64,000 nucleotides of DNA, taken from positions 434,001-498,000 of the forward strand of contig NZ_RZRU01000003.1 of the NCBI RefSeq assembly GCF_003997495.1. The letters are read 5' to 3'. Below the pieces are notes generated by a model. It worked only from the letters and a program-made list of their open reading frames with translations. It was not told the origin of the DNA and ran no database searches. The DNA comes from Mesorhizobium sp. M7A.F.Ca.US.008.03.1.1 (GTDB taxonomy: Bacteria; Pseudomonadota; Alphaproteobacteria; Rhizobiales; Rhizobiaceae). The stretch's first letter is position 1, and the number at the start of each line of letters is the position of its first letter. This document shows, piece by piece, positions 6,842 to 16,240 of this stretch. A program made the translations under genes and the position numbers.

Positions 6842-8092
6842 ATGAAGATAACGGTGCTCGGGGCCGGTGTCGTCGGTACGGCGGCCGCCTATTATCTGGC
6901 CAGCGACGGCCACGAGGTCACCGTGATCGAGCGCCATCCGGCACCGGCGCGCGGCACCAGCCGGTCGAATGCCGGCCTGGTCTCGCCTGGAGACGCCACC
7001 GCCTGGGCTTCGCCGGCGGCGCTGAAGACATTCCTTCGCGCGCTTTACAACCACGATCTCGGTATCAAGGTCAGGCTGCGCTTCGATCCTTATTTCCTCG
7101 CCTGGAGCCTGCGCTTCCTGCGCCAATGCACGAAAGATCGCTTGCGCGCCAACAGCCGGGTCAAGCTGCGCCTGGCGCTCTATTCGCGCGACTGCATCAA
7201 CGCCATCTCCGCCGTTTCAGGCATTCATTATGACGAGCGCAAGAAGGGCATCCTCTATTTCTTCCGCTCGCAGCACAGTCTCGACACCGGCACCGACAAT
7301 TATCGCTATCTGGCCGAACACGGCCTGCCGATCGAGATCGTCGGCCGCGAGCGGCTGGTCGAGCTTGAACCCGGTCTTGCCGGGGTGAAGGAAAAGATCG
7401 CCGGCGGCGTCTATTCGCCGATCGACCAGACCGGCGATTCCCGGCAGTTCGTGGAAAAGCTTGCCGCGTACGCTGCCGAAAAGCTCGGCGTAAAATTTCT
7501 CTATGGCACGACGGTCGAGGGTCTCGACATCGAAGGCGCCCGGGTGCGCGCGGTGATGACTTCGGCCGGACCGGTCACTGGTGATGCCGTAGTCATCTCG
7601 ATGGGGCCGGAAAGCGGCTTGCTCGGCCGTCGCTACGGCATCGATCTGCCAGTCTATCCTGTGAAGGGTTATACCGCGACGCTTCCTTTGGAGGACGAGA
7701 GCAAGGGCCCGACCATGGGCGGCGCCGACGAGGACCAACTGATCGCCTATTCCAGGCTTGGCAACCGGCTGCGGCTCGCCTCGACCGCCGAATTCACCGG
7801 CTTCGACCGCAGCCACAAGCCAAGCGACTTCGCCGCCATGTTCAGGACCGGCAAGGATCTGTTCCCCGGTGCCTTCGACGAGAACAAGGCCGAGCTGTGG
7901 GCAGGCCTGCGGCCGATGATGCCGAACTCGGTGCCGGTCATCGGCCAGGCGCGCTATGAGAATCTCTATCTCGACACCGGCCACGGCCATGTCGGCTGGA
8001 CCATGGCCTGCGGCTCCGGCAAATTCCTTGCCGATCTTGTCGCCGGCCGCAAGACGGAGATCGACCCGCAGGGGCTGGTTTACGGGGGCTAG
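6842..8092 (+). CDS. FAD-dependent D-amino-acid dehydrogenase-like oxidoreductase (DadA family)
   Basis: This 416-residue DAO/DadA-family flavoprotein begins with the Rossmann motif ITVLGAGVVGTAAAYYLA, followed by VIERHP, and NAGLVSPG matches the DadA-type flavin loop. The C-terminal GLRPMMPNSVPVIG and DTGHGHVGWTMACGSG bind FAD and substrate. The usual reaction is D-amino acid to keto acid plus ammonia with electrons to the respiratory chain. The start is the ATG at 6842; 20 further residues upstream look non-coding. It ends 2 bases before a PLP racemase gene, so the two probably form an operon for turnover of a D/L amino acid. Confidence 0.85.
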   Translation: MKITVLGAGVVGTAAAYYLASDGHEVTVIERHPAPARGTSRSNAGLVSPGDATAWASPAALKTFLRALYNHDLGIKVRLRFDPYFLAWSLRFLRQCTKDRLRANSRVKLRLALYSRDCINAISAVSGIHYDERKKGILYFFRSQHSLDTGTDNYRYLAEHGLPIEIVGRERLVELEPGLAGVKEKIAGGVYSPIDQTGDSRQFVEKLAAYAAEKLGVKFLYGTTVEGLDIEGARVRAVMTSAGPVTGDAVVISMGPESGLLGRRYGIDLPVYPVKGYTATLPLEDESKGPTMGGADEDQLIAYSRLGNRLRLASTAEFTGFDRSHKPSDFAAMFRTGKDLFPGAFDENKAELWAGLRPMMPNSVPVIGQARYENLYLDTGHGHVGWTMACGSGKFLADLVAGRKTEIDPQGLVYGG

Positions 8093-8094
8093 AG

Positions 8095-9921
8095 ATGTCG
8101 GGACCGCAAGTCGCCATCGACCTTGGCCGCATCGAGCGCAATGCGCGCACCATCGTCGAGCGCTGCGCGCTCTCGGGCATCAAGGTGTTCGGCGTCACCA
8201 AGGGCACATGCGGCATGCCGCAAGTGGCGCGCGCCATGCTGCGCGGCGGCGTCGCCGGCATCGCCGAATCGCGCTTCGAGAACATCCGCCGGCTGCGCGA
8301 CAGCGGCATCAATGCGCCGATCATGCTGTTGCGCAGCCCGCCGATGGCGCGTGTCGAGGAGGTGGTGCGCACCGTCGACATCAGCCTGCAGTCGGAACTC
8401 GCCACCATCCGCGAGATTTCGCGCATCGCCGAGCGCATGGGCCGGGTCCACGACATCATGCTGATGATCGACCTCGGCGATCTCCGCGAGGGCATCTGGC
8501 CCAATGACCTGATCCCCACGGTCGAGCAGATCTTGCAGTTCAAGGGCGTGCGCATTGCCGGTATCGGCACCAATCTCGGCTGCTTCGGCGCCATCATGCC
8601 GACGCCGGAAAATCTCGGCCAGCTCGTCGCCCATGCCTACAAGACCGAGCGTCTGTCCGGCAAAAGCCTCGACGTGATCTCCGGCGGCGCCTCGTCGTCG
8701 CTGCCGCTGCTGCTCGAAGGCAGACTGCCGGCCGGTATCAACAATCTGCGTGTCGGCGAGGCGATCCTGCAAGGCGGCGTCGAGACCTTCCGCGACACGC
8801 CATTGGCGGAGCTCGAACCCGATGCCTGCCGGCTGACCAGCGACATCATCGAGGTCAAGCTCAAGCCGTCACGGCCGATCGGCCAATCCGGCTACGACGC
8901 CTTCGGCAACCAGCCGGTCTTCCCCGACGAAGGCGACAGGCTGCGCGCCATCGCCAATATCGGCCGTGAGGACGTGCTGGTCGAGGGGCTGATGCCGATC
9001 GCAAAAGGGATAAGGGTGCTCGGCGCCTCCAGCGACCATCTGCTGCTCGATGTCGCCGATGCCGATCCGCCGCCGGCAGTCGGCGACCGCGTCGCCTTCC
9101 GCATGAGCTATGGCGCCATGCTTTTGGCGATGACCTCGGAATATGTCGAGAAGGCCCCGATGCACGACGTCGAGGACTTTTCCGGCCGCAAGATGGTGCA
9201 GATCACGGCCGAGCAAGGGGCTGCCGGCATCCTGGCTCGGGAAGGCACCGGCGCGCGATTGGAAGCGATGAATTTCGACGTCGTCGAGCTGGCCGATGTC
9301 GAGCGGCCGCCATCGGGGCTGATCCGGCTGACCGCCGGCGCCGACCGCCGCATCGCCCATAAGGCGCTGACCGCAACGGCGCGCGCGACACATTCCTTCG
9401 GCCTGATCTGGATCGATTCCATCGCCGCCCTAATGCCCGAGGACGAGGAGGGGATCGACCTGCCGGAAATATCGGTGTTGGCGCGTGCGCTTGGCCTCGA
9501 TCACAAAGCGGGTGCGCTGCAACCGCAGCTGTCGCCGGAAAATGTCGTCATCGTCGGCCTGCGCCACGCCGACCCGGCTGAAGCACGCGTGCTGAAGGAT
9601 TCGCGCGTTGCGGCCTTCACCATGACCGACATCGATGCCATGGGCATGCGCGACCTGATGCATGAAGCGATCCGCATCGCCACCTCGGGTACGCAAGGCT
9701 TTCATGTCAGCTACTCGCCGACCGCGACCGAATTCGCCGGCTGGGCCGCGGGCTCCGGTGGGCTGACCGTGCGCGAGACGCATCAGGCGATGGAGGCGAT
9801 CGCGCTTTCCGGCGGGCTGCTGTCGATGGATGTTTCGGGTCTGACCGCTGATCTGGAGCCACGGATCGGCACCGACGCGGTCAATTTTGTCATGTCGGCT
9901 TTCGGCAAGCGGATCTTGTAA
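8095..9921 (+). CDS. PLP racemase (Ala/Orn racemase fold) fused to a degenerate arginase-like domain
   Basis: The 608-residue protein has two parts. Residues 1-355 are an alanine/ornithine-racemase type PLP barrel: the lysine lies in GIKVFGVTKGTCGMP, followed by the barrel motifs MLMIDLGDLREGIW, GIGTNLGCFG and VISGGASSSLPLL. Residues 360-608 align by eye with arginase/ureohydrolases: LIWIDSIAAL, VVIVGLRHADPAEA, FHVSYSPTATEF, GGLTVRETHQAMEAIA and the closing SAFGKRIL. The metal ligands are gone: the WxDAHxD motif reads WIDSIAA, SxDxDxxDP reads SYSPTATEF, and GGDHS reads GADRR. The second domain is therefore probably a non-catalytic binding or regulatory module. The gene is coupled to the DadA-like gene upstream. 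Its stop codon abuts the stop of the convergent rhaK. Confidence 0.85.
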   Translation: MSGPQVAIDLGRIERNARTIVERCALSGIKVFGVTKGTCGMPQVARAMLRGGVAGIAESRFENIRRLRDSGINAPIMLLRSPPMARVEEVVRTVDISLQSELATIREISRIAERMGRVHDIMLMIDLGDLREGIWPNDLIPTVEQILQFKGVRIAGIGTNLGCFGAIMPTPENLGQLVAHAYKTERLSGKSLDVISGGASSSLPLLLEGRLPAGINNLRVGEAILQGGVETFRDTPLAELEPDACRLTSDIIEVKLKPSRPIGQSGYDAFGNQPVFPDEGDRLRAIANIGREDVLVEGLMPIAKGIRVLGASSDHLLLDVADADPPPAVGDRVAFRMSYGAMLLAMTSEYVEKAPMHDVEDFSGRKMVQITAEQGAAGILAREGTGARLEAMNFDVVELADVERPPSGLIRLTAGADRRIAHKALTATARATHSFGLIWIDSIAALMPEDEEGIDLPEISVLARALGLDHKAGALQPQLSPENVVIVGLRHADPAEARVLKDSRVAAFTMTDIDAMGMRDLMHEAIRIATSGTQGFHVSYSPTATEFAGWAAGSGGLTVRETHQAMEAIALSGGLLSMDVSGLTADLEPRIGTDAVNFVMSAFGKRIL

Positions 9922-11298
9922 TCAGCCCTGCACTTCCACTGCCGCGCGCCATGCGCTGACATAGTCGACCCAGGCCGGGTCTACAGGCAGTTCTATTCTT
10001 TCGCCCTTGCCGTGCGTCGCCGGCTGATCGGATGCCAGCAGCGCGGCGCCGATGCTGGTGCCGGTAGCGGCCTCGGACGCAACGACGGCGCGCGCCGTGG
10101 CTGCCGCCAGCATGCCGACAAAGAGCCGGTTGCGGGCAAAGGGCCCTTCGACCGTGGTCGGGCCATCGGCGCCGATCAGGTCGAGGCAGGTCGCCGTCAT
10201 CAGCGCCAGATAGAAAGAGATGGCGGCAAAGCGCTGGCCGCTGTTCAAGTCGACGGCGTTGAGCCATGCTGCGGCATGGTGCGGGAACGGCCCCGAGCCT
10301 TGCTGGGTCGATGGCAGTAGCAGCATCTTTCGCGCCAGCACGGCGCCGACATCATCCTCGGTCCACTGCTCCGGCTGGTCCTTTGTCAGCACGGAAAACT
10401 CGCGGCCGCCCATGAAGCGCGCCGAGGGAACGGGATTACCGAGTGCATTGACATTGACCAGCGTGTCGCGCGCTGCATCCAGCGCAATCTGTTTGCCGCC
10501 GACCGCCATCGACACCACCCAGGTACCGGTCGAGACGACGGAGAAAGGCGGCTTGTCGGACAGCAGATGCGGCAGCAGCGAGGCGTTGGAATCATGCAGG
10601 CCACAGAACACCGGCGTTTGCGGATCCAGTCCGGTTCGCACCGCAACGATGGGCAGGATAGGGCCGAGACGATCCCTGGCCGGCCGCACCGGCGCCATCA
10701 GGCCGCGCCATTCCAGGCCGTCGACCAACGATGAAAAATCCGCCGTCCACGGGTTCCACAGATCGGTGTGGCAGCCGAGCGAAGTGACCTCGTTGGCAGC
10801 GATGCCGGTCAGGCGCAAGGCCCAGTATTGCGGGTACATCAGCATCGCGGCGGCCCTGGCGAATTCCGCCGGGAAGCTTTTCTGTTGCCAGAAAAATTGC
10901 GCTCCGAGATTGAGGCCGAGCGGCAGGCGCGGCGTGCCGGTCTCGTAAAAGGGCGGGCGGATCGCTTCATAATCCGCTGCCAGCCTGTCAGGGCCATCGA
11001 ACTCATAGTCGAGCACAGGTAGCACCAGTTCACCCGAAGCATTGACCAGCACGCCCGTCGCGCCGTGGGTGGTGATCGAAATGGCGTCGATGCGCTGTTC
11101 GCGGTTGAGGCCGGCAAGGCTTTCGAGGATGAATGCCCACAAGGCCTCGACATCGTGGTGCGGGTAGGGAGCCTGTCGCACCGGCGCATTGGCCATGCGG
11201 CGCAGCGCCACCTCGCTCAACGTAGCGAGGTCGACCAGCGCCACCTTGGCGTTGGTCTTGCCGATGTCGATGACGGCGATATGGCGCATCGCACTCAT
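9922..11298 (-). CDS. rhaK: L-rhamnulose kinase, FGGY family
   Basis: This 458-residue FGGY-type sugar kinase has the N-terminal phosphate-1 motif [43 protein letters not shown] and [10 protein letters not shown], and the C-terminal [27 protein letters not shown]. It would phosphorylate L-rhamnulose (or another product of the locus) to feed the RhaD aldolase. The ATG at 11298 overlaps the rhaU stop by four bases (ATGA), showing translational coupling. It is the last gene of the minus-strand rhaRSTPQUK array. FGGY kinases acting on fucose and rhamnose are similar, so specificity is inferred from context. Confidence 0.88.
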
Positions 11299-11612
11299 GC
11301 CATGTGGAACATTGTTTCCAGCGGCACGGCCACGGGCTCGTTGTCCGGTCTGGTTTCCATGATGTCGGCCATTTCAGCCCACCAGCGCTGCATCACCGAA
11401 TGCCCGGGCAATTCGTCCATGCCGTGGTCGTCTCGCCGCCACAGCACGCCGAACAGGACATCGGTCTCCTCGTCGAGATGGATGGAGTAATCGGAGATGC
11501 CGGCCTGCTTCAGCAGCGATACCAGTGACGGCCAGATCTCGTCATGGCGCTTCTTGTACTCGGCCTTCATGCCGGGCTTCAGCTTCATCTTGAACGCGTA
11601 TTTCTGCGGCAT
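11295..11612 (-). CDS. rhaU: L-rhamnose mutarotase
   Basis: This 105-residue dimeric ferredoxin-like protein interconverts the anomers of L-rhamnose. Family features are [20 protein letters not shown], the [19 protein letters not shown] segment, [15 protein letters not shown], the paired tryptophans in [12 protein letters not shown] and the end PLETMFHM. The ATG overlaps the rhaQ stop by one base (TGATG), and its own stop overlaps the rhaK start. The length matches the family. Confidence 0.95.
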
Positions 11613-12607
11613 CAGCGCCCTCCGCGCAGCCGCCGCCAGACGATCGGCAAGGCAATGACGATGATCAGCAGCAGGCCGATGAAGATCGACATGACGATGC
11701 CGGGCACGTTGAGCAGGCCGAGGCCAAAGGTCACCAGCCCCATGATGAAGGCGGCGAGCACGACGCCCAATATGCTGCCTGCACCGCCGAGAATGCTGAC
11801 GCCGCCGAGCACCACCATGGTGATGACTTCGAGCTCGTAGCCCTGTGCGATCGAGGGCCGGGTCGAACCGAGCCGCGAGGTGATCAGCACCGAGGCGATG
11901 CCCGACATCAGCCCGGTCAGGCAGAACAGGATGAACTTGGTGCGACCGACGCGCACGCCGGAAAACTGCGCAGCTATCGGGTTGTTGCCGATGGCGAAGA
12001 CGCGTCGGCCGAAACTCGTACGGTGCAGCAAGAACCAGTAGACGATGGCCGCGATCAGGAAGAGCACCAGCTCGAACGACACCACCCACCAGACATAGCC
12101 CTGGCCGAAGAAGGCGAAGCTTGAGGGATAGCCCTTGTAGGCCTGGTCGCCGAGGATGATGAAGGCGATGCCGCGAAACAGGCTCATCGTGCCGATGGTG
12201 ACGACGATGGAAGGCAGGCCGAGCCTTGTCACCAGCAGACCGTTGAAGGCGCCGCAGCCGAGCCCGACGACGATGCCGATCGCCACCAGCGCCGGCGTGC
12301 CTGCGCCGGCCTGCACCGCCATGCCCATCATGGTCGACGCAAGCGCGATGATGGCGGCCACCGACAGATCGATCTCGCCCGAGATGATCAGCAGCGCCAT
12401 GGCGAAGGCGATCAGACCCTTCTCGGTGAAATTGAAGGTCAGATCGGACAGCGAATACGGGTCGAGGAAATAGGGCGATGCGAAGCTGTTGATGGCGAAG
12501 ATCGCCACGGCCACCACGACCAGCAGCGCTTCCCAGGAAAAGATCGCCGAACGAAGCGGCTTGTCGAGCCGGTCGGGAATATGGCGCGGGGCAGGGATGT
12601 CGGTCAC
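11612..12607 (-). CDS. rhaQ: Rhamnose ABC transporter, permease
   Basis: This 331-residue inner-membrane permease belongs to the ribose/CUT2 class (BPD_transp_2). It has about ten hydrophobic segments, the [17 protein letters not shown] motif typical of the class, and the EAA-like region [19 protein letters not shown] followed by [11 protein letters not shown]. The late [18 protein letters not shown] loop matches RbsC-like proteins. It pairs with RhaP; both genes overlap by four bases (ATGA at 12604-12607). The assignment to rhamnose follows from operon context. Confidence 0.92.
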
Positions 12608-13578
12608 GCCTCCACCTTTCTGAGGATGATGCGGCCTTGCTGGCGTTCGCCGCGCGCGTTGAGCACGACGGCCAGGATGATGGCGCTGCCCGAAATCGCC
12701 ATCTGCCAGAAGGGCGAGATGTTGATGACCGGAAGCGCGTTGGAGATGATACCGAGGAACAGTGCGCCGAGCACCGCGCCGCCGACCGAGCCGATGCCGC
12801 CGGCGATAGAGATGCCGCCGATAACGCAGGCAGCAATGATGTTGAGCTCATAGCCATTGGCGACCTCGACCGACGCGATCACATAGCGCGAGATCCAGAG
12901 ATAGCCCGATAGGCCGCCGATCATGCCGGAGATGCAGAAGACGATGAATTTCGTCCGGCCGACATCGATGCCGGCATAGACCGACGCCGTCGGATTGACG
13001 CCGATGGCATAGATCGAGCGGCCGAGCGCGGTGCGCGTCATCAGGACAAAGAACAGCGCGATGACCAGGATGGCGATCCACGACAGCACCGGAATGCCGA
13101 GGAAGGCGGCGCGCTGGAAGCCGATGAAGTCCGGGCTCATCTTGTCGGCATTGACCCAGGCGCCGCCGGACAGGACGAAGGTGGCGCCGCGATAGATGGT
13201 CAGCGTGCCCAAAGTCACCACGATCGAGGGGATGTTCAGCCGCCAGACCAGCAGGCCGTTGATGGCGCCGAGCATCAGCCCTACGGCCAGCGCGATGACG
13301 ATCAGCAGCGGGATCGGGATTGCCGGATGCGCGGCGTTCAGCATCGCCACCACCATGCCGGTGAAGCAGAGGTTGGACGCCATCGACAGATCGATCGACC
13401 GGGTCAGGATGACCACCATCTGGCCAAGCGCCAGGATCATCAGGATCGAGGTGTCGTTGAACACCTGACGCAGATTGCCGGGGTCGGCAAAGGCCGGGAA
13501 GCGCGTCGAGATCAGGCCGATCAGCAGGACGATGGCCGCCAACAGCCAGATTTCACGGTATTTGAGGAAAGCTTTCAT
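12604..13578 (-). CDS. rhaP: Rhamnose ABC transporter, permease
   Basis: The second CUT2-class permease, 324 residues, starts [20 protein letters not shown]. It carries [17 protein letters not shown] (the counterpart of the SGEIDLS motif in RhaQ), [17 protein letters not shown] and [18 protein letters not shown]. Its two ends overlap the neighbouring rhaT and rhaQ genes by four bases each, so the complex subunits are translated in tandem. RhaP and RhaQ would form the membrane heterodimer energised by RhaT. Confidence 0.92.
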
Positions 13579-15131
13579 GCCACGATCCCCGCTGCCGTCC
13601 GAACCAGCGTCTCGGCGTCCAGCCCCTTGTTGTCGTAGACCGCCGCGACAAGCCCCTCGCGCATGACCACGACGCGGTCGGACATGCCGAGGATTTCGGG
13701 CAGCTCGGACGACACCATGATCACCGACAGGCCTTGTGCCACCAACTCGGCCATGAAGCCGTGCACGGCGGCCTTCGAGCCGATGTCGATGCCCTTGGTC
13801 GGCTCGTCGAGGATGATCACCTTAGGCGACGTCGCCAGCCATTTGGCGATGACGATCTTCTGCTGGTTGCCGCCCGACAGCGTGCCGACGTCCTGGCTGA
13901 GCGAGGAGGCCCTGAGGTCGAGCCGCTCGGTGTAGGAGCGGGCCAAATCGAACTCCTCCGACAGCCGCAGCAGGCCGGACTTCGAGGTGCGCTTGAGCGA
14001 AGGCAGCGAGACGTTCTGGAAGATAGGCAGGCCGATCACAACGCCCTGCTTGCCGCGTTCTTCGGGCACGTAGACGATGCCGGCATCGATCGAATCCGCA
14101 GCCGATTTCGGCGCGAGCGTCTTGCCTTCCAGCGTGATCGTGCCGGCTGATGTGCGGGTGATGCCCGATATCGCCTGCATCACCTCGCTGCGGCCGGCGC
14201 CGACAAGGCCGTAGAAGCCGAGGATCTCGCCCTTGTGCAGTTCGAAGCCGATGTCGTTGAATTCGGTCGGATGCGACAGGCCGGAAACGGAGAGCACCGG
14301 CGCGCCGATCTCGGCCTTGCGCTGCGGGAAGATGTGATCGACCGCGCGGCCAACCATCAGGCGCACGATCTGGCTCTGGCCGGCGTCCCTGATCAGGCCT
14401 TCGCCGACCATCTCGCCATCGCGGAACACCGTGTAGCGGTCGGCGATACGGTAGATCTCGTCGAACTTGTGGCTGATGAACAGGATCGCCTTGCCATCGC
14501 TCTTCAGGAACTCGATCAGCAAAAAGAGCTCCTCGATCTCCTTCATCGAAAGCGCGGCGGTCGGCTCGTCCATGATGACGATCTGCGCGTCGATCGACAT
14601 GGCGCGCGCAACGGCGACCAGATGCTTGTTGGCGATGCCGAGGTCCTTCAACCGCGCGTCGGCGTCGATATGGCCGGCATGCATGGTGTCGAGCACTTCG
14701 CGCGCATTCTTGCGCATCGTGCGCCAGTCGATGGTGCCGAAACGCGTGCGGGGCGCGTGGCCGAGAAAGATGTTTTCGGCGACGCTCAGATCGTCGAACA
14801 GCACGGTTTCCTGGTGGATGGCCGTGACGCCATGGCCGAAGGCGGCATGCGCACTGGGCAGGGTGATGGCCTGGCCGTCGATGCTGATGGTGCCCCCGTC
14901 GGGCTGGTAGATGCCGGTCATGATCTTGACCAGCGTCGACTTGCCGGCGCCATTTTCGCCGATCAACGCCGTCACCTGCCCCGGATAGAGCGACAGGCTC
15001 ACATCGTGCAGCGCGCGCACGCCGGGAAAGCTCTTGGAGATGCCGGACAGCGTCAGGCGTGGAGCCGCCTCACCCTCCCCCTTGTGGGGAGGGTCACGAA
15101 CATCGTGAGCGGGGTGGGGGTTGTCTAGCAT
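13575..15131 (-). CDS. rhaT: Rhamnose ABC transporter, duplicated ATP-binding subunit
   Basis: This CUT2-class tandem ATPase has about 518 residues. The first nucleotide-binding domain has Walker A GENGAGKSTLVK and Walker B VIMDEPTAALS. The second has the degenerate GLVGAGRSEVMQ, the signature LSGGNQQKIVIAKWL, and VIILDEPTKGID. The best available start is the ATG at 15131 with an AGGA site. From there the first 24 codons (MLDNPHPAHDVRDPP...) are read through a palindromic repeat, and the conserved protein begins only at RLTLSGISKSFPGVRAL. No other start lies between the repeat and the conserved part. An earlier in-frame ATG at 15248 overlaps rhaS and would read through both repeat copies. Confidence 0.9.
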   Translation of the reverse strand: MLDNPHPAHDVRDPPHKGEGEAAPRLTLSGISKSFPGVRALHDVSLSLYPGQVTALIGENGAGKSTLVKIMTGIYQPDGGTISIDGQAITLPSAHAAFGHGVTAIHQETVLFDDLSVAENIFLGHAPRTRFGTIDWRTMRKNAREVLDTMHAGHIDADARLKDLGIANKHLVAVARAMSIDAQIVIMDEPTAALSMKEIEELFLLIEFLKSDGKAILFISHKFDEIYRIADRYTVFRDGEMVGEGLIRDAGQSQIVRLMVGRAVDHIFPQRKAEIGAPVLSVSGLSHPTEFNDIGFELHKGEILGFYGLVGAGRSEVMQAISGITRTSAGTITLEGKTLAPKSAADSIDAGIVYVPEERGKQGVVIGLPIFQNVSLPSLKRTSKSGLLRLSEEFDLARSYTERLDLRASSLSQDVGTLSGGNQQKIVIAKWLATSPKVIILDEPTKGIDIGSKAAVHGFMAELVAQGLSVIMVSSELPEILGMSDRVVVMREGLVAAVYDNKGLDAETLVRTAAGIVA

Positions 15132-15231
15132 ATCAAGGTCCTGGTGCGTGGAGATGTCGCCACCCCACCCCGTCTCGCCGGTTTTGCTTCGCAAGACCGC
15201 CTCGCCGACCCTCCCCACAAGGGGGAGGGTG
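15071..15231. repeat. Two inverted copies of a GC-rich palindromic element
   Basis: Copy A (15071-15120) reads CACCCTCCCCCTTGTGGGG followed by AGGGTC, a small ACGAACATCGTGA dyad and GGGGTGGGGG. Copy B (15161-15231) is the same element inverted, with a longer variable hairpin (GGTTTTGCTTCGCAAGACC) in the middle. The pair sits between rhaS and the conserved part of rhaT, and copy A is read as rhaT codons. Such elements are dispersed in Mesorhizobium-like genomes. Confidence 0.85.
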
Positions 15232-15244
15232 CAAGCGCCCCAGA

Positions 15245-16240
15245 TCAATAGATCTTGGAGAACTTCTCGATGTTCGACTTGTCGAACTGGAAGGGCGGAG
15301 CCATCGCAGCCGAGTTGGTGTCGTCAAGCGTGACCTTGCCGACGCGGCCGATCGACAGCGTGGCGCCGGGCTTTGCCTCTTCCTTCTTCACCGCCAGATC
15401 ATGGGCGAGGTAGACGGCCGAGTAGCCGAGGTCGATCGGATTCCACAGCGCAACCGCCTGGCTGGAACCGTTGTCGATGAACTTCTTGAACTCGGACGGC
15501 AGTGCGAGACCGGTGACATTGACCTTGCCGATCAAGTTCTCGTCGGTGACGACCTGGGCGGCGGCGACGACGCCGACGGTGGTCGGCGCGATGATCGCCT
15601 TGAGGTTCGGATAGGACTTCAACAGCCCCTTGGCTTCGTCGGTGCTCTTGGCAGAGTCGTCATCGCCATAGACGGTGGCGACGAGTTTGATCTTGGGGAA
15701 CTTCTCCGGCAGGATCTTCTTGGCCGCGTCGATCCAGGCGTTCTGGTTGGTCGCGGTCGAGGAGGCCGACAGGATGGCGACCTCGCCGCCTTCCGGCAGG
15801 TGGTCGGCGGCAAGCTTGATGATGGTCTCACCGATCAGGCCGGTATCGGACGGGTTGAGGTGAAGCTGGCGGCCTTCCTTGGCGACGCCCGAATCCCACG
15901 AGATGACGGTGATGCCGCGTTCCATGGCCTTCTTCAGCACAGGCACCAGAGCGTCGGCGTCGTTGGCCGAAATGGCGATGGCGTTGACTTTCTGCGCGAT
16001 CAGCGAATTGACCACTTCGATCTGGGCTTCGGCGGTCGCCTTGGTCGGGCCGGTGTAGATGATGTCGACGTCGCCGAGTTCCTTGGCCGCCTCTTCGGCG
16101 CCCTTGTTGGCGGCATCGAAGAAGCCGTTGCCGAGCGACTTCACCACCAGTGCGATCTTGACGTTTTCGGCATAGGCGGCATTTACGAACATGGCGGCTG
16201 AAAAGGCCGCCGTCACCATCAATTTCTTCAAGAAGCTCAT
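15245..16240 (-). CDS. rhaS: Rhamnose ABC transporter, periplasmic binding protein
   Basis: This 331-residue protein is exported: KKLMVTAAFSAAMFVNAAYA is a signal peptide with cleavage expected before ENVKIAL. The mature part is a type I periplasmic binding protein (Peripla_BP_4), with VVKSLGNGFFDAANKGAEEA, AQIEVVNSLIAQKVNAIAIS, VISWDSGV and NQNAWIDAAKKIL. It would capture L-rhamnose and deliver it to RhaPQT. The ribosome site GGGAGGAAATTCG before the ATG is strong. The palindromic repeat pair after the stop could hold the high-level binding-protein message separate from the permease part of the operon. Confidence 0.93.
   Translation of the reverse strand: MSFLKKLMVTAAFSAAMFVNAAYAENVKIALVVKSLGNGFFDAANKGAEEAAKELGDVDIIYTGPTKATAEAQIEVVNSLIAQKVNAIAISANDADALVPVLKKAMERGITVISWDSGVAKEGRQLHLNPSDTGLIGETIIKLAADHLPEGGEVAILSASSTATNQNAWIDAAKKILPEKFPKIKLVATVYGDDDSAKSTDEAKGLLKSYPNLKAIIAPTTVGVVAAAQVVTDENLIGKVNVTGLALPSEFKKFIDNGSSQAVALWNPIDLGYSAVYLAHDLAVKKEEAKPGATLSIGRVGKVTLDDTNSAAMAPPFQFDKSNIEKFSKIY

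What the first reader, a model, noticed from the sequence alone, without database searches (positions are those of the whole stretch)
8095..9921. PLP racemase fused to an arginase-like domain that has lost its metal ligands
The C-terminal 250 residues follow ureohydrolases over most of their length, but the D/H ligands are replaced (WIDSIAA for WxDAHxD, SYSPTATEF for SxDxDxxDP, GADRR for GGDHS). The N-terminal part is an alanine/ornithine racemase with its lysine kept. Arginase makes ornithine, so a dead arginase fold would be a natural ornithine/arginine sensor or substrate guide for an ornithine racemase. The gene is coupled to a DadA-type D-amino-acid dehydrogenase, suggesting an L-to-D-to-keto acid route.
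Basis: partly seen in the sequence, partly recalled or inferred. Interest (0 to 1): 0.72.

Follow-up and report, generated by a model that had tools for sequence, protein, structure and literature searches.

The report
Arginine racemase with dead arginase domain
This soil bacterium carries one protein that joins a racemase, most likely for arginine, to an arginase that has lost its metal site but kept the place where arginases grip each other and a regulatory arginine, so a dead enzyme has probably become the oligomer-builder and arginine sensor of a living one.

Summary
Window 8095-9921 encodes 608 residues: an alanine/ornithine-racemase-type PLP domain plus a full-length arginase fold (model vs arginases Z 27-28) with five of six metal ligands lost. 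It is not local decay: the fusion occurs in dozens of Mesorhizobium genomes and in Aminobacter, Labrys, Shinella, a Burkholderiaceae MAG and Thiofilum. None of the 65 copies tabulated has the metal site, yet the domain is under purifying selection. What stayed fixed in all 65 is the arginase subunit interface: D514, R560, E561 and E567. D514 and E567 match the residues that hold Arg308 at the mammalian trimer interface, where Bacillus caldovelox arginase binds free L-arginine.

The ornithine reading is probably wrong. In complete operons the gene sits with 5-guanidino-2-oxopentanoate decarboxylase, aldehyde dehydrogenase, agmatinase-type ureohydrolase, D-amino-acid dehydrogenase and a Rid protein: the L-Arg to D-Arg to 2-ketoarginine to 4-guanidinobutyrate route. 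The decarboxylase is in 15/15 fusion genomes versus 105/283 others. Best explanation: an arginine racemase whose dead arginase domain oligomerises it and probably senses arginine. Arginine binding and regulation are inferred. Precedents exist (Fusobacterium decarboxylase-dead-arginase fusion, MetCb, T. brucei arginase), so this is a new variant of a known kind.

The parts
8095..9921 (+). Fusion gene: PLP racemase plus pseudo-arginase, 608 aa
8095..9159 (+). Racemase part, residues 1-355, alanine-racemase fold of the Orr-like branch; PLP lysine K36 at 8200-8202
9160..9921 (+). Pseudo-arginase domain, residues 356-608, complete arginase fold without the C-terminal S-tail
9346..9429 (+). Former metal-ligand positions R418 (H99 in B. 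caldovelox arginase), D441 (D122, kept), I443 (H124), A445 (D126)
9715..9723 (+). Former metal-ligand positions S541 (D226) and T543 (D228)
9634..9636 (+). D514 (= B. caldovelox D199, mammalian D204), subunit-interface / regulatory-arginine residue, invariant in 65 of 65
9772..9777 (+). R560 and E561 (= R249, E250), in the same interface motif, invariant in 65 of 65
9793..9795 (+). E567 (= E256, mammalian E262), subunit-interface / regulatory-arginine residue, invariant in 65 of 65
6842..8092 (+). D-amino-acid dehydrogenase (DadA/DauA type), 2 nt upstream of the fusion and its neighbour in most branch-A loci
   Evidence: NF001933 453 bits against cut-off 383

Best explanation
The gene encodes an arginine racemase of the alanine/ornithine-racemase superfamily. 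Its C-terminal domain is an arginase that has lost catalysis. It works in the D-arginine / 2-ketoarginine route: L-arginine is racemised to D-arginine by this protein; the coupled DadA-type dehydrogenase oxidises it to 2-iminoarginine; a Rid protein or water gives 2-ketoarginine; an AruI-type decarboxylase, an aldehyde dehydrogenase and an agmatinase-type ureohydrolase take it to 4-aminobutyrate and urea. The pseudo-arginase domain no longer cuts arginine. It keeps the arginase subunit interface, so it most likely oligomerises the racemase dimers. It probably also binds L-arginine at that interface (D514 and E567, as in B. caldovelox arginase) and so couples racemase activity or assembly to the arginine supply. 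Shown here: fusion, fold, ligand loss, conservation of the interface residues, purifying selection, operon partners. Inferred: arginine as substrate, oligomerisation, arginine binding, regulation.
For: Fold: arginase over the full domain. Ligand loss in all 65 copies, with D514, R560, E561 and E567 invariant in all 65, including a branch only about 37% identical; only 14 of 201 C-domain columns are invariant, so chance inclusion of all four is about 1.5e-5 (the four were picked from known arginase biology after the alignment was seen). In mammalian arginase the D204/E262 pair holds Arg308 across the trimer interface; in B. caldovelox arginase, which lacks Arg308, a free L-arginine binds there (PMC7925462). 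The fusion ends where that arginase ends, without an S-tail. Median dN/dS 0.21 for the C-domain against 0.19 for the racemase. Operons: ureohydrolase, 5-guanidino-2-oxopentanoate decarboxylase (770 and 753 bits against cut-off 500), ALDH, DadA, fusion, Rid. Decarboxylase in 15/15 fusion genomes against 105/283 others, p 7e-7. Own genome has it, three ureohydrolases and a Rid relative. Rid2/Rid3 proteins deaminate the iminoarginine made by D-arginine dehydrogenase (PMC5619798).
Against: No biochemistry. The sequence model calls the racemase Orr-like, and ornithine is also a possible substrate. In Mesorhizobium the decarboxylase is elsewhere in the genome (contig 2), not beside the fusion. The interface residues could be kept only for trimer contacts, without arginine binding. 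The co-occurrence test ignores relatedness. Full-length model pTM is 0.57, so the domain arrangement is unknown, and no oligomer was modelled. One branch-B genome (G798) lacks the decarboxylase.
Confidence: 0.55

Rival explanations
1. Scaffold only: the pseudo-arginase trimerises the racemase dimers into a larger particle (for stability or to dock DadA) and binds no ligand.
For: The invariant residues are those of the arginase trimer interface. The former active site is free to vary. MetCb, a metal-free ureohydrolase, acts as a structural partner in metformin hydrolase (PMC11271267).
Against: The C-terminus stops before the S-tail, as in B. caldovelox arginase, where the site is open to free arginine. 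A ligand of the arginase family matching the operon's substrate would be a coincidence.
Confidence: 0.25
2. Ornithine racemase with an arginase-derived ornithine/arginine sensor in the old active site.
For: Closest named model is Orr. Arginase produces ornithine.
Against: Score is below the Orr cut-off (398 against 480). The operons encode a 2-ketoarginine route. Former substrate-site positions are lost or variable (E271 to G582, D178 to D/S/A).
Confidence: 0.12
3. Heteromer tether: the pseudo-arginase forms mixed hexamers with the intact ureohydrolase of the same operon, linking the first and last enzymes of the route, as MetCb does with MetCa.
For: An intact agmatinase-type ureohydrolase is encoded close by in Thiofilum, Shinella, Roseateles, L081, L083, L122 and L161. 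Pseudoenzyme-enzyme ureohydrolase hexamers exist (PMC11271267).
Against: The neighbour is of agmatinase type and lacks the arginase-type interface residues that the fusion keeps (alignment). In Mesorhizobium the ureohydrolases are unlinked.
Confidence: 0.07
4. Non-functional remnant: the arginase domain is decaying baggage.
For: The linker and the first strands of the domain vary strongly. One relative (G029) has a broken copy.
Against: C-domain dN/dS 0.21, invariant interface residues, and the fusion kept from Mesorhizobium to Thiofilum.
Confidence: 0.01

Closest known systems
Fusobacterium nucleatum ornithine decarboxylase fused to an arginase homologue (PMC8503589)
   Same: A PLP enzyme of basic-amino-acid metabolism with a C-terminal arginase-like domain that has lost Mn ligands
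   Different: There the PLP part is an aspartate-aminotransferase-fold decarboxylase, the arginase domain lost two Asp ligands, and removing it hardly changed activity; here it is an alanine-racemase-fold racemase and five ligands are gone. The PLP folds are unrelated, so the fusions must be independent.
MetCb, the metal-free subunit of metformin hydrolase (PMC11271267)
   Same: Ureohydrolase fold with five of six ligands lost, kept for a structural role
   Different: Separate subunit pairing with an active ureohydrolase, not fused to a racemase
Trypanosoma brucei arginase-like protein (Hai 2015, known here only by citation)
   Same: Arginase fold without the binuclear Mn cluster
   Different: Stand-alone protein
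Ornithine racemase Orr (NF040742)
   Same: N-terminal domain belongs to the same branch of PLP racemases
   Different: Below the model's cut-off; Orr is a stand-alone protein of about 350 aa
Bacillus caldovelox arginase
   Same: Fold, subunit-interface residues D199, R249, E250, E256, and lack of an S-tail
   Different: Active Mn enzyme; here no metal site, and fused to a racemase

Membership tests
Ureohydrolase (arginase) fold superfamily, PF00491 | Sequence profile match and three-layer arginase fold | tested here: met
   PF00491 57 bits against 22; Z 27-28 to arginases over the whole domain
Arginase (catalytic) | GGDHS, DAHxD and SxDxDxxDP binuclear Mn ligands | tested here: not met
   five of six ligands replaced in the window; metal site lost in all 65 copies
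Arginase (NCBIfam TIGR01229 equivalog) | curated cut-off 227.6 bits | tested here: not met
   74.1 bits
Arginase-type subunit interface | D199 / R249 / E250 / E256 (B. caldovelox numbering) | tested here: met
   D514, R560, E561, E567 invariant in 65 of 65
PLP alanine-racemase fold | fold and PLP lysine | tested here: met
   PF01168, Foldseek matches to alanine racemases, K36 invariant
Ornithine racemase Orr | NF040742 cut-off 480 bits | tested here: not met
   397.9 bits
Arginine racemase | racemises arginine | not testable with these tools
   inferred from operon partners and co-occurrence
2-ketoarginine pathway operon | 5-guanidino-2-oxopentanoate decarboxylase, ALDH, ureohydrolase and D-amino-acid dehydrogenase encoded together with the fusion | tested here: met
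   complete in Shinella, Roseateles plasmid and Thiofilum; at the Mesorhizobium locus only DadA is adjacent, and the decarboxylase is elsewhere in the genome

The most novel reading that the evidence does not exclude
A dead arginase domain, covalently fused to an arginine racemase, has been converted from enzyme to L-arginine sensor: it lost the metal site but kept the interface site that binds regulatory L-arginine, and so gates the first step of arginine catabolism.
Probability: 0.42. Interest if true: 0.75.

Novelty: new variant of a known kind. Interest (0 to 1): 0.6.

Why it matters
Pseudo-ureohydrolases recur, but why they are kept is mostly unknown. Here the family tells which part of the arginase matters after catalysis is gone: the subunit interface with its arginine-binding acids. 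It gives a widespread protein in which to test whether a dead enzyme became an amino-acid sensor. It also names a candidate arginine racemase for the D-arginine route of rhizobia, in a gene that RefSeq calls alanine racemase, and it parallels an independent fusion of a PLP decarboxylase to a dead arginase in Fusobacterium.

Tried and rejected
Local decay: rejected by conservation in dozens of genomes and dN/dS 0.21. Homologue with intact ligands: sought by peptide-pattern scan and by profile in family, order, class and phylum samples; none found; the nearest is L160, which keeps H99 and D122 but has M, S, N, A for the other four. One origin of the fusion: the tree neither supports nor rejects one clade for branches A and B (p-AU 0.47). 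A first tree script recovered only two stand-alone relatives and was replaced. The T. brucei paper is not held. No paper found describes this fusion.

Full report
What is there. The ORF at 8095-9921 (+) encodes 608 residues. Residues 1-355 are a PLP racemase of the alanine-racemase fold (PF01168; best named model Orr, 398 bits against a cut-off of 480). Residues 356-608 are an arginase-type domain (PF00491 57 bits; solved arginases by sequence, E 6e-18). The AlphaFold model of residues 357-608 alone has pLDDT 87 and pTM 0.88 and matches arginases over the whole fold: VIA-align Z 28.3 to 2ef5 with 236 residues at 2.4 A; Foldseek's best hits are all arginases. The full-length model gives alanine racemases and arginases as two sets of matches, but with pTM 0.57 the relative position of the domains is not known.

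Ligands. By the alignment to B. caldovelox arginase, the six Mn ligands H99, D122, H124, D126, D226, D228 are R418, D441, I443, A445, S541, T543. Five are lost; D122 survives as D441. Over 60 branch-A copies and 5 copies of a divergent branch B, none has the metal site; D441 is kept in 64 of 65, the other positions change. One early-branching copy (L160) still has the first His.

Not decay. The fusion was found in 75 loci of the genome collection (a few of them cut by contig ends): Mesorhizobium, Aminobacter, Pseudaminobacter, Labrys, Shinella, Rhizobium, a Burkholderiaceae MAG, Thiofilum. Family, order, class and phylum samples added a branch B of 577-612 aa. Within Mesorhizobium it is patchy: 12 of 37 genomes of the genus have a full copy. 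Median pairwise dN/dS is 0.185 for the racemase, 0.214 for the arginase-like domain and 0.34 for the linker and first strands.

What is conserved instead. In 65 copies only 14 of 201 columns of the C-domain are invariant. They include D514, R560, E561, E567, which are D199, R249, E250, E256 of B. caldovelox arginase. D199 and E256 correspond to mammalian D204 and E262 (numbering from own knowledge of the arginase sequences, consistent with the spacing). PMC7925462 reports that Arg308 of the S-tail bridges E262 and D204 across the trimer interface, that R308A is monomeric, and that B. caldovelox arginase, which has no Arg308, binds an L-arginine molecule at the same place. Garcia et al. 2015 (cited in PMC6988801, title only) reports arginine activation through an allosteric site in that enzyme. 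The fusion ends where B. caldovelox arginase ends, so by analogy the site would be open to free arginine. The agmatinase-type ureohydrolases of the own genome do not share these residues, so the domain descends from a true arginase.

Which pathway. In Thiofilum the order is ureohydrolase, 5-guanidino-2-oxopentanoate decarboxylase, aldehyde dehydrogenase, D-amino-acid dehydrogenase, fusion, Rid protein. Annotated records of Shinella zoogloeoides and Roseateles sp. XES5 show amino acid permease, universal stress protein, speB, 5-guanidino-2-oxopentanoate decarboxylase, ALDH, 'biotin carboxylase', C45 peptidase, DadA, fusion (named alanine racemase), Rid. DadA lies directly upstream in most branch-A loci. 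In the window DadA (6842-8092) ends two bases before the fusion. In a 298-genome family sample the decarboxylase is present in 15 of 15 genomes with the fusion (one, G103, seen as two fragments) against 105 of 283 others (p 7e-7, no correction for relatedness), and in 3 of 9 genomes with a stand-alone Orr-like racemase. The own genome has the decarboxylase on another contig, three ureohydrolases and a Rid relative. PMC5619798 shows that D-arginine dehydrogenase releases iminoarginine and that Rid2 and Rid3 proteins deaminate it; the Rid subfamily of the proteins here was not determined. The racemase is therefore most likely an arginine racemase; ornithine is less likely. This is inference from context.

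How it probably works. L-Arg to D-Arg (this protein), to 2-iminoarginine and 2-ketoarginine (DadA, Rid), to 4-guanidinobutanal (decarboxylase), to 4-guanidinobutyrate (ALDH), to 4-aminobutyrate and urea (ureohydrolase). The pseudo-arginase oligomerises the racemase through the kept interface and probably binds L-arginine there. A pure scaffold is the main rival.

Known relatives. PMC8503589 describes a Fusobacterium ornithine decarboxylase fused to an arginase homologue without key Mn ligands; the isolated decarboxylase domain had similar activity. PMC11271267 describes MetCb, a metal-free ureohydrolase that acts as a binder of its active partner. No paper on the racemase fusion was found in the searched library, which holds only open-licence papers.

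Noticed in passing
L094 2099-4659; L191 6195-8672; L192 5214-7691: A stand-alone 'biotin carboxylase' (ATP-grasp, NF005096) and a C45 autoproteolytic acyltransferase/hydrolase sit between the aldehyde dehydrogenase and DadA in the arginine operons of Labrys, Shinella and Roseateles; their role in arginine catabolism is unexplained.
   Followed up: partly
L122 2807-3763; L161 161-1498: In two branch-B copies of the fusion an intact agmatinase-type ureohydrolase lies directly upstream and no DadA is seen in the short flanks held; genome G798 of L161 also lacks the decarboxylase, so branch B may use another substrate.
   Followed up: partly
L004 1501-2274 (own genome, contig 2): A further odd arginase-family protein in the own genome: GGDHS is AGNCL and DAHxD is DQHGD, but HLDMDVHDP is kept, so the metal site is partly altered.
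   Followed up: no
L156 614-3075 (own genome, contig 2): The own genome's 5-guanidino-2-oxopentanoate decarboxylase overlaps an arginine-deiminase-family hydrolase and is followed by a short-chain dehydrogenase, a different arginine cluster from the one in Shinella.
   Followed up: no
L019 1501-2750: In the relative G029 the fusion gene is broken in the racemase part (stop codon and change of frame), a loss event in one Mesorhizobium.
   Followed up: no
window 9922-15248: Downstream, on the other strand, lies an FGGY sugar kinase with two ribose-type ABC permeases and an ATPase, a sugar uptake cluster unrelated to arginine.
   Followed up: no
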